Below, piece after piece: positions 8,595 to 63,738 of a stretch of 64,000 nucleotides of DNA. Each line of letters begins with the position of its first letter. Position 1 is the first letter of the stretch. The notes under the pieces were generated by a model. The model worked only from the letters and a program-made list of their open reading frames with translations, made no database searches and was not told where the DNA came from. This DNA comes from Promicromonospora sp. AC04 (lineage in GTDB: Bacteria > Actinomycetota > Actinomycetes > Actinomycetales > Cellulomonadaceae): contig NZ_QBUG01000001.1 in NCBI RefSeq assembly GCF_003058225.1, forward strand, positions 1 through 64,000. Direction: 5' to 3'. Position numbers and translations under genes: made by a program.

Positions 8595-8659
8595 ACGCGA
8601 GTGGGGTGTGTTGCGCAGCGTAGACATCGTCTACGCAGAGCAACACACCCCACTCGCGT
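8595..8659. repeat. 65-bp near-perfect palindrome, intergenic
   Basis: Arms of 31 bp (ACGCGAGTGGGGTGTGTTGC... and its complement) flank a 3-nt centre. The only break is a 3-bp mismatch (GCA against TCT) 8 bp from the centre. It lies between the convergent ATP-grasp and membrane-protein genes, so it can act as a bidirectional terminator, but the stem is far longer than needed. The sequence is unlike the other palindromes in the window. Confidence 0.85.
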
Positions 8660-10468: not shown

Positions 10469-10524
10469 ACTCCTATGCCTAGTTCTGCCAGGTGTTGAAC
10501 CCTAGCAGAACTAGGCATAGGAGT
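10469..10524 (-). promoter_or_regulatory. probable PadR operator overlapping the ribosome binding site
   Basis: A 20-bp arm, ACTCCTATGCCTAGTTCTGC, is repeated inverted across a 16-nt centre. Nested within it is CCTAGNNNNNCTAGG (10501-10515, minus strand CCTAGTTCTGCTAGG). The right arm contains the AGGAG ribosome binding site of padR. Actinobacterial PadR operators are often CTAG-containing dyads, and position plus symmetry argue for autorepression. An RNA hairpin hiding the binding site is an alternative. Confidence 0.65.
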
Positions 10525-14393: not shown

Positions 14394-14420
14394 GTCGACA
14401 TCACTTCCTCTTGAGAGCCG

Positions 14421-14481
14421 CCGGCTCAGCGATTGTGCCCAGAACTCACCACCTGAGTTCTGGGCACAATCGCTGGGCCGG
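14421..14481 (-). terminator. argH terminator / long hairpin, family II member
   Basis: The 22-bp arm CAGCGATTGTGCCCAGAACTCA (14427-14448) is perfectly complementary to 14454-14475 across a 5-nt loop. After one mismatch, another 5 bp (CCGGC/GCCGG) pair. It begins about 22 bp after the argH stop. The sequence is related to the hairpin at 32807-32870. Confidence 0.8.
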
Positions 14482-14502
14482 CGGCGAAACGGGACAGCGC
14501 GA

Positions 14503-29908: not shown

Positions 29909-30892
29909 ATGCACGCAGTCGTAGCCCGCGAGCCGGGCGGTCCCGAGGTCCTGTCGTACACCGAGCTCCCTGACCCGACACCCGGCCCAGGGCAGGTGCT
30001 GGTCCGTGTCGCCGCGGCGGGCGTGAACTTCATCGACACCTATCGCCGCGCCGGCGTCTACCCGATGCAGTACCCCCACGTGGTGGGCGTCGAGGGCGCG
30101 GGCACGGTCGAGGCCATCGGCGACGACGTCACGGGCTTCGCCGTGGGCGACCGCGTGGCCTGGCTCGACGGTCCCGGTTCGTACGCGGAGCTCGTGGCCG
30201 TGGACGCCGCGGGGGTCGTGCACGTGCCCGGCTTGCTGGACCTGACCACCGCCGCCGCGCTGCTCCTGCAGGGCATCACCGCGCACTACCTGGTGCGCTC
30301 CACGTTCGAGGTGCAGCCCGGGCACGACGTGCTGCTGCACGCGGGCGCCGGCGGCGTCGGCCTGCTGGCCACGCAGCTGGCCGTCGCACGCGGCGGGCGG
30401 GTCGTGACCACGGTCTCGACACCGGAGAAGGCGGCGCTGTCCTCCGCGGCCGGTGCCGCGCACACCATCGACTACGCCGCGATGGCCGACATCACCACCG
30501 AGCTGCCGTCGATCGTACGCGACCTCACCGATGGCCAGGGCATGCACGTCGTGTACGACGGCGTGGGCCGGTCCACGTTCGAGGCCTCGCTCGCCTCGCT
30601 GCGCGTGCGCGGGATGCTGGTGCTGTTCGGCGCGGCGTCCGGCCCGGTGCCGCCGTTCGATCCGCAGCGGCTCAACAAGGGCGGCTCCCTGTACCTCACG
30701 CGGCCGACGAGCTCGCACTACCTACGCACGCGCGGCGAACTCGAGTGGCGCACCTCCGATGTGCTCGAGTCCGCGGCGGCGGGCGACCTGGAGGTCCGCA
30801 TCGGGGCCACCTACTCGCTGTCCGACGCCGGGGAGGCGCACCGGGCGCTGGAGGGACGGGCCACGACCGGCAAGGTGCTGCTCGTTCCCTGA
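29909..30892 (+). CDS. NADPH:quinone oxidoreductase (zinc-free medium-chain reductase)
   Basis: The 327-aa cytosolic MDR-family enzyme reduces quinones with NADPH. The N-terminal catalytic domain includes VAAAGVNFIDTYRRAGVYP and PHVVGVEGAGTVEAIG, without the zinc-binding cysteines of alcohol dehydrogenases. The Rossmann region is LLHAGAGGVGLLATQLAVARG (about 145-165). YDGVGRSTFEASL and FGAASGPVPPFDPQRLNKGGS are typical of Qor. The ATG has no Shine-Dalgarno. The gene is followed by the tandem repeat array. Confidence 0.92.
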   Translation: MHAVVAREPGGPEVLSYTELPDPTPGPGQVLVRVAAAGVNFIDTYRRAGVYPMQYPHVVGVEGAGTVEAIGDDVTGFAVGDRVAWLDGPGSYAELVAVDAAGVVHVPGLLDLTTAAALLLQGITAHYLVRSTFEVQPGHDVLLHAGAGGVGLLATQLAVARGGRVVTTVSTPEKAALSSAAGAAHTIDYAAMADITTELPSIVRDLTDGQGMHVVYDGVGRSTFEASLASLRVRGMLVLFGAASGPVPPFDPQRLNKGGSLYLTRPTSSHYLRTRGELEWRTSDVLESAAAGDLEVRIGATYSLSDAGEAHRALEGRATTGKVLLVP

Positions 30893-30894
30893 CG

Positions 30895-31106
30895 CCGGGG
30901 TCGAGGTCGGTCTCTTGCTGGGTCAGCCGGGGTTGAGGTCGGCCGGTTGGTCGACTGCGCTCGCTGAGATCGGCCCCATGCTGGACCGCGCTCGTTGAGT
31001 TCGGCCCCTTGCTTCGCCACGCCCGTTGAGATCGGTCCCATGCTGGACTGCGCTCGCTGAGATCGGTCCCTTGCTGGACTGCGCTCGCTGAGATCGGTCC
31101 CTTGCC
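30895..31106 (+). repeat. tandem array of a degenerate 31-bp repeat
   Basis: The core GAGATCGGTCCC (variants GAGGTCGG, GAGTTCGGCC) recurs at 30903, 30935, 30966, 30997, 31028, 31059 and 31090, that is, every 31 bp with one 32-bp step. The last copies are nearly identical: CTGCGCTCGCTGAGATCGG followed by TCCCTTGCTGGA. Copies become more degenerate toward the qor stop. There are no spacers, so it is not a CRISPR array. The last copy runs directly into the long palindrome. Confidence 0.85.
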
Positions 31107-31157
31107 TTGAGATCGGTCCATCGATGGACCGATCTCAAGGCAAGGGACCGATCTCAG
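31088..31157. repeat. perfect 70-bp palindrome without loop
   Basis: Two 35-bp arms meet at 31122/31123. The outer part is CTGAGATCGGTCCCTTGCC (the 31-bp repeat core) and the inner part is TTGAGATCGGTCCATC, followed by their exact complement. The inner core GATCGGTCCA-TCGA-TGGACCGATC recurs at 31240-31257 and 63698-63723 with other central tetramers. Confidence 0.95.
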
Positions 31158-31239
31158 AGCCGGCCTCAGGGCATGCGACCGATCTCGATACAAACGACCG
31201 ATCTGGAGGCACACGGGCGGCGTCGGACGCGCCATCGAT

Positions 31240-31257
31240 CGGTCCAACGTTGGACCG
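31240..31257 (+). promoter_or_regulatory. 18-bp palindrome, possible LacI-type operator of the GH43 gene
   Basis: CGGTCCAACGTTGGACCG is perfectly symmetric with a central CG, as in LacI-family operators. It lies 37 bp upstream of the predicted -35 of the GH43 gene. It shares CGGTCCA-N4-TGGACCG with the long palindrome, so it could be either a regulator site or another copy of the repeat. Confidence 0.5.
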
Positions 31258-31293
31258 GAACGCGGGTCAGCGCCACAACCTTGGAGCGCACCC

Positions 31294-31358: not shown

Positions 31359-32780
31359 GTGGTACTTCCTCGCTTCTCCCGTGCTCTCCTTGTCGGCGCG
31401 GCCATCACCGCCCTGGCACTCGGGGCCCTCACTACCAGCTCCGCCGCTGCCGCACCCGCCGACGACGCCGACGACGCAGGCACCCCGCCGTCGTCCGACA
31501 ACGTCGCCACCCACAGCGGCGAGATCTCCACCCAGGCGACCGTTCGCCCGAGCCTCGTGCTCGACCGCAACTTCCCCGACCCGGACGTCACCAAGTTCGG
31601 GAACACCTACTACGCGTACGCGACGAACGAGGGCAAGAACCTGCCGTGGGCCACGGCGCCCGACCCGGACGGGCCGTGGACCTACCAGTCAACGGACGCC
31701 CTGCCGAGCCTCGGGGCGTGGGCCAAGACGGGGCGCACCTGGGCACCCGACGTCTCGCAGCGGTCCGACGGCCGCTACCTGCTCTACTACACGGCCTGGC
31801 ACACGGCGTCCGGGCGGCAGTGCATCGGCGCCGCCCTGTCGGACTCCCCCGGCGGCCCGTTCGCCCCGGTCGGGAGCGAACCGCTCGTGTGCCCGCTGGC
31901 GGCGGGCGGCGCCATCGACGCGTCCAGCTTCGTCGACACCGACGGCGCCCGTTACCTGGTCTGGAAGAACGACGGCAACGCCATCGGCGCCACCACCTGG
32001 ATCCACGTGCAGCGCGTGGCCGCGGACGGCGTGACCTTCCAGGGCGGAGCTACACAGGTATTGCGCAACGACCGCGCCGACGAGGCGGGCATCATCGAGG
32101 CGCCCGTCATCACCAAGGTCGGCAGCCAGTATGTGCTGTTCTACTCGGCCGGCCCGTACTCGACCAACCAATACGGCACGAACTACGCGGTGTCGAGCTC
32201 GATCACCGGGCCCTACACCAAGGCGTTCCGCTTCCTCATGACCACCGAGTCGCTCGACGGCGCGGTGGCCGGCCCCGGCGGCGCCGACGTCCTGCGCGAC
32301 GGCGGGGGCGACAAGCTCGTCTTCCACGGCCACCGGGACGCTGGCGGCCGCGGCATGTACGTCGCCGACCTCGGCTGGGCCAACGGTTACCCCGTGGTGC
32401 GCGGCAGCCGCGTCCGCTACGAGGCCGAGCGCGGCACCCTGAACAACTGCTCGGTCCGCGAGAACGCGGCCGGCGCATCGGACGGCAAGGTCGCCGCGTA
32501 CATCGACCACGCAGACAGCTGGGTCGACGTCCGCTCGATCTACGTGCCCACGTCCGGCAGCTACTCGCTGCACGTCGGCTACGCCAACGGGTCGGTCGAG
32601 ACGGCGACGCACACGGTAACGGTGAACGGAGCGGCGGCCGGGTCCATCAGCTATCCCGTGACCGGCTGGGACAACTGGCGGCAGTCGACGCGGGACGTCA
32701 CCCTGCAGGCGGGCTGGAACACTATCCGGCTGGCCAAGGGGACGGCGTTCGCGGAGCTCGACTACATCGAGGTCGCCTAG
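31359..32780 (+). CDS. secreted GH43-like glycoside hydrolase with C-terminal CBM
   Basis: A probable exported arabinofuranosidase, xylosidase or arabinanase acting on plant cell-wall polysaccharide. From the GTG at 31359 (GGAGG, 7 bp) the protein has 473 aa. The signal peptide (1-32, cut near AAAA-PADD) is followed by an Asp/Thr-rich linker. The five-bladed propeller (about 65-350) has candidate catalytic acids Asp74 (FPDPDV), Asp187 (AIDASSFVD) and Glu247 (IIEAPVI). A CBM35/CBM6-like beta-sandwich follows (about 360-473, RYEAERGTLNNCSVREN ... LDYIEVA). The exact substrate cannot be read. It is probably regulated by a sugar-responsive repressor. Confidence 0.87.
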   Translation: MVLPRFSRALLVGAAITALALGALTTSSAAAAPADDADDAGTPPSSDNVATHSGEISTQATVRPSLVLDRNFPDPDVTKFGNTYYAYATNEGKNLPWATAPDPDGPWTYQSTDALPSLGAWAKTGRTWAPDVSQRSDGRYLLYYTAWHTASGRQCIGAALSDSPGGPFAPVGSEPLVCPLAAGGAIDASSFVDTDGARYLVWKNDGNAIGATTWIHVQRVAADGVTFQGGATQVLRNDRADEAGIIEAPVITKVGSQYVLFYSAGPYSTNQYGTNYAVSSSITGPYTKAFRFLMTTESLDGAVAGPGGADVLRDGGGDKLVFHGHRDAGGRGMYVADLGWANGYPVVRGSRVRYEAERGTLNNCSVRENAAGASDGKVAAYIDHADSWVDVRSIYVPTSGSYSLHVGYANGSVETATHTVTVNGAAAGSISYPVTGWDNWRQSTRDVTLQAGWNTIRLAKGTAFAELDYIEVA

Positions 32781-33770: not shown

Positions 33771-34526
33771 TCAGACCGTGGGTGGCGTCGGCCAGGTCGG
33801 GCAGGTCAGGCCCTGCTCGAAGAAGCGGTACTCGTGCACCGACGAGATCTCGAACGCGCGCAGCATGCGCGCCCGTTCCTCCGGGGAGACCCAGCGCGCG
33901 GCGGCGTCGGCCAGGAGCCGTGCCTGCCGGGTCGACTCCTGGAAGCCCTCGTCGCCGTACGTGCCGATCCACGCGGCGTACGGGTGGCCGGCCAGGCCAC
34001 CGGGGTGCCGTCCGGCCAGGTCCACGAGCACGCTCCCGACGTGCGCATACAGCCAGAAGCAGGGCAGCAGCGCCGCGACCGTCTCCGCGTACGTACCCGA
34101 CGCCGCCGCATGCAGGTGACCGGTGTACGCCGCGGTCACGGGTGAGGGCTCGACGGCCGCGACCTCGTCCGCGCCGAGGCCCGCGTGCGTGCCCAGCCAG
34201 TCCCGGTGCAGCGCCGTCTCCACCTCCAGCGCCTCGACGGACGAGCGGGCGAGAAAGCCCTGCGCGGCGGCGTCGGGCGCGAGCTGGGCCGCCCGCGCCA
34301 GGACCCGCGAGTACTCGCGCAGGTAGGCGGCGTCCTGGCTGAGATAGAACGCGAAGGACCCGGCGGGCAGCGAGCCGGCCGCGAGCGCCCGGACGAACGG
34401 CATGCGGTCCACCGCGTCGCGCCAGCCCGCTATGCGTTCCCAGGCTTCCTCAGTGAAGGGGCGGACGGCGGCGCCGTCGGCCGGCACGGCGGGGGTAGAG
34501 GTAGAAACGGAGACAGCAGAAGTCAT
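33771..34526 (-). CDS. tenA: thiaminase II / aminopyrimidine aminohydrolase
   Basis: Salvages thiamine pyrimidine (HMP) by hydrolysing aminopyrimidine breakdown products, feeding thiamine synthesis. The 251 aa include a 20-residue Ser/Thr/Ala leader, then PFTEEAWERIAGWRDAVDRMPFVRALAAGSLP and FYLSQDAAYLREYSR. The catalytic-type LLPCFWLYAHVG cysteine and EYRFFEQGL near the end are also present. ATG 34526 has GAAGGG 9 bp upstream, which is the 3' end of the TPP riboswitch; an ATG 9 bp earlier is too close. The gene appears monocistronic and converges with tam. Confidence 0.93.
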   Translation of the reverse strand: MTSAVSVSTSTPAVPADGAAVRPFTEEAWERIAGWRDAVDRMPFVRALAAGSLPAGSFAFYLSQDAAYLREYSRVLARAAQLAPDAAAQGFLARSSVEALEVETALHRDWLGTHAGLGADEVAAVEPSPVTAAYTGHLHAAASGTYAETVAALLPCFWLYAHVGSVLVDLAGRHPGGLAGHPYAAWIGTYGDEGFQESTRQARLLADAAARWVSPEERARMLRAFEISSVHEYRFFEQGLTCPTWPTPPTV

Positions 34527-34530
34527 TGTG

Positions 34531-34605
34531 GACATCCCTTCGCCAGCATGATCTGGATCAGGTTCGACGGGTGTGGTCTCAGCCCCGGGCGGGGCACCCC
34601 GTGTC
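34531..34605 (-). promoter_or_regulatory. TPP (THI-box) riboswitch
   Basis: On the minus strand, GGGGTGCC ... GGCTGAGA ... ACCC ... GAACCTGATCCAGATCATGCTGGCGAAGGGA is the canonical thiamine-pyrophosphate aptamer; CTGAGA and CCTGATC are the pyrimidine- and pyrophosphate-binding cores. Its last helix includes the GAAGGG ribosome binding site of tenA, so TPP should block translation start. Confidence 0.95.
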
Positions 34606-34616
34606 ACGTGCCGCAG

Positions 34617-63660: not shown

Positions 63661-63738
63661 TCGGCAGTTTGCATCACAAACACGGCAGTTTGCATCGAGG
63701 TCGGTCCAGGCCTGGACCGACCTCGATGCAAACTGCCG
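63661..63738. repeat. direct repeat plus perfect 56-bp palindrome, family I
   Basis: CGGCAGTTTGCATC occurs at 63662 and again at 63683, where it begins a 56-bp perfect palindrome (63683-63738) without loop. The inner core GAGGTCGGTCCA-GG/CC-TGGACCGACCTC matches the core of the 31088-31157 palindrome apart from one base per arm. A short CTGCCGA copy follows at 63751. Confidence 0.9.

What the first reader, a model, noticed from the sequence alone, without database searches (positions are those of the whole stretch)
30895..31157. 31-bp tandem repeat array running into a perfect 70-bp palindrome
Seven copies of a GAGATCGGT-centred unit repeat every 31-32 bp and grow more alike toward the right. 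The last copy forms the outer arm of a loop-free palindrome with 35-bp arms. Such perfect palindromes are usually lost by cruciform cleavage, so this one is either recent or kept by selection. The architecture suggests repeat units generated by slippage or by hairpin-primed copying. It sits in a promoter gap before a glycosidase gene.
Basis: seen in the sequence. Interest (0 to 1): 0.75.

Follow-up and report, generated by a model that had tools for sequence, protein, structure and literature searches.

The report
Nuclease-linked palindrome repeats at gene ends
The odd palindrome is one of dozens of related DNA hairpins scattered at the ends of genes in a soil bacterium, and the family appears to be tied to a nuclease-like gene that is itself sandwiched between two copies, which would be a new kind of partner for such repeats.

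Summary
The palindrome is real: 31088-31157, 35-bp perfect arms, with a 31-bp array on its left. It is no one-off. The host genome (Promicromonospora, judged from relatives) has 62 core palindromes; all 13 genus genomes held carry the core. Sites lie mostly just after stop codons or between convergent genes. At the same site, linkers and arrays differ between species, yet arms stay complementary. Outer boxes keep 30/31-bp spacing although spacers are nearly unrelated.

The host has no REP-type Y1 transposase. In the loci fetched, all six element pairs 1.0-1.6 kb apart (six genomes, three genera) flank one gene: AbiEi-like, with a probable DUF559/MTES_1575-type nuclease domain. Homologs found by protein search have their own, different, dispersed repeats on both sides in 6 of 7 loci (6 of 8 with a host paralog); controls 0 of 300 genes.

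Best reading: a REP-like family with a nuclease-like partner instead of a RAYT, settled at gene 3' ends and homogenised by copying. Association and location are shown; binding, cutting and copying are inferred.

The parts
30903..31089 (+). left array: outward direct repeats of the outer-arm unit (box GASWTCGGTC + NNTTGC, then a locus-specific spacer), period 31; outer copies more diverged
   Evidence: TRF period 31, 5.5 copies at 30934-31105; box matches; 30/31 spacing is general for the family
31088..31157 (.). perfect palindrome, 35-nt arms, no spacer
   Evidence: the repeat finder I1; RNA fold of 30893-31265 z -7.0
31090..31105 (+). left outer-arm unit GAGATCGGTCCCTTGC
   Evidence: sequence; family comparison
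31106..31108 (+). left linker CTT, pairs with AAG at 31137-31139; linkers differ between sites but match between arms at 100 of 136 sites
31109..31118 (+). left inner box GAGATCGGTC
31119..31126 (.). 8-nt centre CATCGATG, variable in the family
31127..31136 (-). right inner box (GACCGATCTC on the + strand)
31140..31155 (-). right outer-arm unit
63683..63738 (.). second member of the family in the window (subfamily B), 28-nt perfect arms, between convergent genes
29909..30892 (+). zinc-type alcohol dehydrogenase gene whose stop precedes the element
   Evidence: Pfam ADH_N and ADH_zinc_N
31359..32780 (+). GH43 glycosidase gene with a CBM35/CBM6-type match, downstream of the element
   Evidence: Pfam Glyco_hydro_43 5.6e-37, scanned on the longer ORF from 31107; start by my gene call

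Best explanation
The window feature is a dispersed, non-coding member of a REP-like palindrome family. SHOWN: it is multi-copy and genus-wide, lies mostly at gene 3' ends, has fixed box geometry and compensated arms, and pairs of its copies flank, in three genera, a gene for an AbiEi-like protein whose homologs carry a probable DUF559/MTES_1575-type nuclease domain. INFERRED: the AbiEi-like winged-helix part binds the 10-bp boxes; the nuclease-like part nicks or cuts the palindrome (as duplex or extruded hairpin); repair copies sequence from another site. That would spread copies, keep the two arms alike and make copies within one species resemble each other. Gene 3' ends are where such inserts do least harm and where a long hairpin can also serve as a transcript end or insulator. 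Tandem units beside the hairpin grow by slippage and are held in about three-turn register by protein binding. In short: it works like a REP-RAYT pair, with a different enzyme.
For: Copies: 62 in host, reverse-read control 0; 13 of 13 genus genomes with the relaxed core; strict core 12 of 13 in the genus and 3 of 187 outside it. Location: of 66 sites between tandem genes 57 lie nearer the stop; of 119 placed sites 38 are in convergent and 15 in divergent gaps, against 53 and 114 of 363 gaps >=100 bp in the same loci, element gaps included. Arms: linkers match at 100 of 136 sites; shuffle mean 12 (max 24), within-species shuffle mean 33 (max 46). Homogenisation: A-type linker similarity within a species 0.541, permuted 0.419 (max 0.453 of 500), orthologous sites 0.506, other pairs 0.398. 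Geometry: next outward box at 30/31 bp on 95 of 111 sides with a box within 60 bp, host alone 35 of 36; spacer identity between loci 0.316 vs 0.278 shuffled; in genus G196 next box at 19 bp on 43 of 44 sides (22 of 28 sites examined). Gene link: in the loci fetched all six pairs 1.0-1.6 kb apart flank this gene family, in four different neighbourhoods. Protein-first homologs: same-repeat flanks on both sides (E < 1e-5) in 6 of 7 plasmid-record loci, 6 of 8 with host paralog L062; controls 0 of 300 host genes and 0 of 17 neighbours. All six of those repeats recur in records of the same host species or strain (5 to 36 places, both strands, gene flanks included) and matched no other organism in that collection. 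Domains: PADLOC AbiEi 2.9e-12 to 1.9e-15 in three orthologs; DUF559 above Pfam cut-off in 3 of 6 homologs. No Y1 transposase in host.
Against: No binding or cleavage test exists here. The Promicromonospora and Cellulosimicrobium proteins themselves gave no DUF559 or REase match in Pfam at E <= 1, none in NCBIfam, and one gave no meaningful PDB match; the nuclease domain rests on homologs, conserved residues and weak profile hits to an endonuclease-like protein (0.019) and PvuRts1I (0.03). The AlphaFold model was poor (mean pLDDT 42.6). Two homologs, L403 Nonomuraea and L062 host paralog, have no flank repeats, and by the same 350-bp test two element-flanked loci fall short (L144 no match, L282 1e-4), though with 450 bp finds L144. 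Loci were fetched because they hold elements, so pairs say what lies between copies, not how often the gene is flanked; its presence in each genus genome was not tested. Outer arms are slightly more alike at orthologous sites (0.81) than within a species (0.784), against strong homogenisation. Long hairpins of other families show the same 3'-end bias (67 of 73 tandem), and stem-loops prefer convergent gaps in bacteria at large (PMC1590033, passages), so location is not specific. No clean empty site with a target duplication was found.
Confidence: 0.6

Rival explanations
1. Ordinary transcript-end hairpins: the palindromes are long GC-rich intrinsic (bidirectional) terminators kept for RNA folding; the repeat family and the gene link are side effects.
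For: 3'-end placement; RNA fold z -7.0; 151 long hairpins in 1.664 Mb of host with the same bias; other hairpins (score >=15) at the same slot in other species, L056 slot 9 of 12 readable and L044 slot 6 of 13; Streptomyces terminators are long and poor in U (PMC12207403, passages); hairpins without poly-U are common terminators in one survey (PMC8355165, abstract and one section).
Against: No T run after 31157; in the 10 nt after the hairpin 40 of 66 tandem sites have 0-1 T and none more than 4. No G.U bias among stem mismatches in the sense direction, 19 G.U vs 20 A.C. Boxes outside the hairpin keep orientation and 30/31-bp spacing, which RNA folding does not need. In G196 box spacing is kept while linkers are only 54% complementary. 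At the L060 slot no other hairpin of that strength replaces the family. Does not explain the flanked nuclease-like gene.
Confidence: 0.2
2. Arrayed binding sites for a host chromosome protein (gyrase or nucleoid type, as reported for BIMEs), with the nuclease-like gene merely using these sites as safe insertion points.
For: Fixed box orientation and 19 / 30-31 bp spacing with free spacers; placement between convergent genes.
Against: The repeats beside homologous genes in other hosts have entirely different sequences, as expected of enzyme-specific targets rather than of one conserved host protein.
Confidence: 0.12
3. Passive product of mutation: hairpin template switching plus slippage generates and perfects palindromes, with no dedicated protein.
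For: Compensated linkers without wobble bias; template switching can create and mend stems (PMC8794818, abstract and opening paragraphs).
Against: Does not explain one box at 62 sites, box conservation between genera, or the flanked gene against 0 of 300 controls.
Confidence: 0.08

Closest known systems
REP / BIME with REP-associated tyrosine transposase (RAYT, TnpA-REP; 'REPtron')
   Same: Dispersed extragenic palindromes; a gene flanked by two copies; element and protein type vary together; clusters (PMC2817692 and PMC8266576, abstracts and outlines).
   Different: No Y1 transposase in the host; partner is AbiEi-like plus a probable DUF559/MTES_1575-type domain; no excess of GTAG or CGTC tags; four-box hairpin of 66 bp with phased outer boxes.
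Intrinsic terminators of GC-rich Actinobacteria
   Same: Long GC-rich hairpins shortly after stop codons, few U (PMC12207403, passages).
   Different: Sequence-defined boxes, outward arrays, dispersed family, linked gene.
AbiEi antitoxin operators
   Same: AbiEi binds 11-bp inverted repeats and has a winged helix (PMC3985639, passages).
   Different: There the repeats lie in one promoter; a fused nuclease domain is not mentioned in the passages seen.
Free-standing homing endonuclease genes
   Same: Nuclease-like gene beside its presumed target, copies spreading to like sites (recalled).
   Different: Target is a many-copy palindrome family; cutting untested.

Membership tests
REP/RAYT (REPtron) | many dispersed extragenic palindromes | tested here: met
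   62 core palindromes in host
REP/RAYT (REPtron) | Y1 (PF01797) transposase gene in the genome | tested here: not met
   0 matches in host; control found it in 5 of 14 known genomes
REP/RAYT (REPtron) | a gene flanked by two copies | tested here: met
   six of six pairs 1.0-1.6 kb apart in the fetched loci, but the gene is AbiEi/DUF559-like, not a RAYT
REP/RAYT (REPtron) | GTAG or CGTC tag beside the palindrome | tested here: not met
   within 10 nt outside the arm: GTAG 3 and CGTC 14 of 268 sides; 60-70 nt away 1 and 15
Intrinsic terminator | hairpin close after a stop codon | tested here: met
   median 89 bp from stop to centre at 66 tandem sites
Intrinsic terminator | U-rich tract after the hairpin | tested here: not met
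   no T run at the window copy; 4 of 66 tandem sites have 4 T in 10 nt, none more
Intrinsic terminator | transcripts end there | not testable with these tools
   no RNA data
PD-(D/E)XK-type nuclease (DUF559 / REase_MTES_1575) | profile match and conserved acidic residues | tested here: inconclusive
   none in Promicromonospora proteins; weak in L282; DUF559 above cut-off in 3 of 6 plasmid-record homologs; invariant E206, R210, D237, D250, G251, R276 in 11 sequences; AF2 model poor
IS / MITE | target-site duplication at insertion | tested here: inconclusive
   3 of 111 both-flank pairs lacked the element and no junction was worked out

The most novel reading that the evidence does not exclude
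A widespread class of nuclease-driven palindromes in Actinobacteria: each AbiEi-DUF559/REase gene owns a private palindrome family, is sandwiched between two copies, seeds further copies at gene 3' ends through cut-and-repair copying, and keeps them alike. This would be a second, independent answer to how REP-like repeats arise, with an enzyme unrelated to RAYTs.
Probability: 0.5. Interest if true: 0.88.

Novelty: new variant of a known kind. Interest (0 to 1): 0.74.

Why it matters
REP-like palindromes are common, and the enzymes tied to them in what I read and recall are tyrosine (Y1) transposases. This family has none in its host. A second enzyme class, built on a domain Pfam still lists as of unknown function (DUF559), would explain orphan families in Actinobacteria, give DUF559 genes a testable role, and offer a tractable case of nuclease-driven concerted evolution that also reshapes transcript ends.

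Tried and rejected
Plasmid and phage DNA collections: no match to the window element. Rfam at gathering threshold: only a TPP riboswitch. RAYT: none in host. Hits in Methylobacterium BTF04 (L141) and a Bdellovibrionaceae MAG (L180) lack the outer arms and were set aside as chance or contaminant. Of 151 core sites (up to 3 mismatches), 15 were dropped before the arm tests: those two, Cellulosimicrobium, Isoptericola, and sites with weak arms or lying in arrays; 136 remain. In the first context table 4 of 34 host rows fell inside called genes and were left out, and a few of the 34 are array pieces or weak copies. RNA-only selection: wobble test 19 vs 20, no support. Structure: model too poor, so no fold search was run. 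Viral-contig scan for more homologs: 30 pattern matches, none confirmed. PHROGs: one weak unnamed match in one of four proteins. Literature: ten searches. Judged from listings (title and start of abstract), none links DUF559 or AbiEi proteins to dispersed palindromes, and none of six papers holding 'Promicromonospora' and 'palindromic repeat' is about this; those were not opened. RAYT + 'REP sequences' + Actinobacteria gave no paper. Passages of PMC12306157, PMC3733652 and PMC1590033 named no Promicromonospora repeat. The library lacks most subscription journals.

Full report
OBSERVATION. The palindrome at 31088-31157 has 35-nt arms that are fully complementary with nothing between them. To its left is a period-31 array, 30934-31105 by TRF, whose boxes are more diverged outward. 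Two inverted boxes lie on the right. The gap runs from a zinc-type ADH stop (30892) to a GH43 start (31359).

FAMILY. A blastn search of the host genome with the element gave 67 matches, about 34 places, many of them hit on both strands. A pattern for the inner core with up to two mismatches gave 62 copies, and none for the pattern read backwards (the listing was cut, the count is whole). All 13 Promicromonospora genomes held match a relaxed core exactly, 4 to 47 copies each. With the strict core 15 of 200 family genomes match: 12 of 13 in the genus (host included) and 3 of 187 outside it. The window holds a second copy, 63683-63738.

ANATOMY. The hairpin is box (10) - 9 bp - box (10) - 8 nt - box' - 9 bp - box'. 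In subfamily A the 9 bp are NNTTGC plus a 3-nt linker; subfamily B has other outer arms. Outer boxes point to the centre: left forward 117 vs reverse 31, right reverse 108 vs forward 28. Their distance from the outer-arm box is 30 or 31 on 95 of 111 sides that have a box within 60 bp (11 further sides have the next box beyond 60), while spacers are nearly unrelated, 0.316 identity against 0.278 shuffled. In the host alone it is 35 of 36 sides. 103 of 209 scored sides carry at least one outer unit in register. In G196, another genus, the next box is at 19 bp on 43 of 44 sides (22 of 28 sites examined) while the 9-nt linkers are only 54% complementary. So box geometry is kept more strictly than pairing.

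LOCATION. Of 136 sites from nine Promicromonospora genomes, 119 could be placed between two called genes: 38 convergent, 66 tandem, 15 divergent (10 at locus edges, 7 inside gene calls). Of the 66, 57 lie nearer the stop; medians 89 and 191.5 bp. The gene caller is a simple codon model of mine trained on host loci. In 1.664 Mb of the host, 151 long hairpins of any family show the same bias: 57 convergent, 73 tandem (67 nearer the stop), 8 divergent, 13 inside genes; a shuffled 200 kb gave 0 against 18. By my blastn clustering, eleven families have two or more members (47 of 151) and ours is the largest, 14.

TURNOVER AT FIXED SITES. At the window site 8 of 13 species carry a family palindrome, with different arrays, linkers, loops and even subfamily; one keeps a remnant box, one is empty, and three have another downstream gene. 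Two of the eight have core changes that are compensated (GGCT..AGCC, GGCA..TGCC). At other sites the family is rarer: L056 site 1 of 12 readable and L044 site 2 of 13, L055 site 2 of the 4 genomes with the gene, L060 site 5 of 13 (four, one). Other hairpins of score >=15 fill the slot in 9 of 12 (L056) and 6 of 13 (L044), but none do at L060. Linkers match between arms at 100 of 136 sites; shuffled 12 (max 24), within species 33 (max 46). For A-type sites linker similarity is 0.541 within a species (permuted 0.419, max 0.453), 0.506 at orthologous sites, 0.398 otherwise. The outer arms do not follow: 0.81 at orthologous sites, 0.784 within a species. Stem mismatches are 19 G.U and 20 A.C in the sense direction, so RNA wobble is not favoured.

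THE LINKED GENE. In host locus L038 two elements lie 1313 bp apart around one gene. Scanning the loci from L036 to L401 and the window for core pairs (up to one mismatch, under 4 kb), every pair 1.0-1.6 kb apart, from six genomes (host, two P. iranensis strains, P. kroppenstedtii, Cellulosimicrobium, G196), flanks a homolog of this gene. Pairs 0.2-0.3 kb apart leave no room for it; of three pairs 2.0-2.3 kb apart, L106 and L117 hold two other genes and L093 was not looked at. These loci were mostly fetched because they hold elements, so this says what lies between pairs, not how often the gene is flanked. The gene sits in four different neighbourhoods. Host and P. iranensis copies have A-type elements, the P. 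kroppenstedtii copy B-type; these two protein types are 62-63% identical.

PROTEIN-FIRST TEST. A tblastn search of plasmid records with the P. kroppenstedtii protein found six records; a second search with the Tsukamurella protein added one. In these seven loci six have a copy of one repeat on both sides of the gene at E < 1e-5: L402, L404, L405, L406, L407, L408; L403 has none. The host paralog L062 has none either, giving 6 of 8. Gene bounds for L403-L405 were approximate. By the same test the element-flanked loci L038, L095, L096 and L125 pass, L282 reaches only 1e-4 and L144 nothing within 350 bp, though 450 bp finds it. Controls: 0 of 300 host genes of 600-1500 bp and 0 of 17 neighbours. 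The repeats differ in each case; those of L402, L405, L406 and L407 fold back as hairpins or inverted copies. Each of the six recurs in records of its own host (L402 20 places, L404 36, L405 11, L406 12, L407 10, L408 5; both strands, gene flanks included) and matched no other organism in the collection. One L402-type site was viewed in each of seven further records: 5 convergent, 2 tandem gaps. In L406 the upstream copy lies in a divergent gap, so 3'-end placement is not absolute. A further homolog, L196, is cut by its locus edge and ends in yet another repeated palindrome.

PROTEIN. N-terminal part: AbiEi-like (PADLOC 2.9e-12, 5.6e-14 and 1.9e-15 for L038, L125 and L144; Pfam AbiEi models below cut-off). 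C-terminal part: no Pfam or NCBIfam nuclease match in those three; weak REase_MTES_1575 (1.2e-4) and DUF559 (0.022) in L282; DUF559 above cut-off in L402, L406 and L408, REase_MTES_1575 below cut-off in all six plasmid-record homologs. E206, R210, D237, D250, G251 and R276 are invariant in 11 sequences and would fit a PD-(D/E)XK-like site (assignment by eye). A profile search of the PDB gave weak matches to an endonuclease-like protein and PvuRts1I over that region. The AF2 model was too poor to use.

MECHANISM. Shown: repeats, geometry, location, turnover, gene association. From passages: AbiEi binds inverted repeats and has a winged helix (PMC3985639). Inferred: box recognition by the AbiEi-like part, nicking or cutting by the nuclease-like part, copying into like sites. 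This one chain accounts for dispersal, within-species likeness of linkers, arm likeness and the sandwiched gene. A role in ending transcripts may be added and may be why hairpins persist at stop codons.

COMPARISON AND NOVELTY. It works like a REP-RAYT pair (abstracts) but fails the Y1 and tag tests, so it is not filed as a member. Judged from listings, no paper in the searches made links these proteins to dispersed palindromes; absence from a partial library is weak evidence of novelty.

Noticed in passing
window 34518-34611 (-): TPP riboswitch, upstream of a TENA/THI-4 family gene on the - strand.
   Followed up: no
window 31235-31257: Short palindrome CGGTCCAACGTTGGACCG before the GH43 gene; an AACGTT core recurs before GH43 in several other species (by eye), so it may be a regulator's operator rather than part of the element.
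   Followed up: no
window 8595-8659, 10469-10524, 14417-14485: Other long hairpins at gene ends; the first belongs to a second host family with 9 members in 1.664 Mb.
   Followed up: partly
L056 and L044 sites in 13 species (L211-L223, L238-L250): Unrelated palindrome types (with GAGGTAGAAC, CCCGGGTGACCTGAGG or TCGAGCTTGTCGAGACC) replace each other at the same gene end.
   Followed up: partly
L196 333-396 and 981-1046: A paralog of the linked gene in genome G097 ends in a different repeated palindrome (GGTCGGCAGAACGTCAGGT).
   Followed up: partly
L079 and L125 (Cellulosimicrobium): Boxes repeat every 19 bp rather than 30/31 bp.
   Followed up: partly
L186 (genome G105), cores at 647, 872, 1128, 1365: Four family cores 225-256 bp apart in tandem beside the window's orthologous gene.
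   Followed up: no
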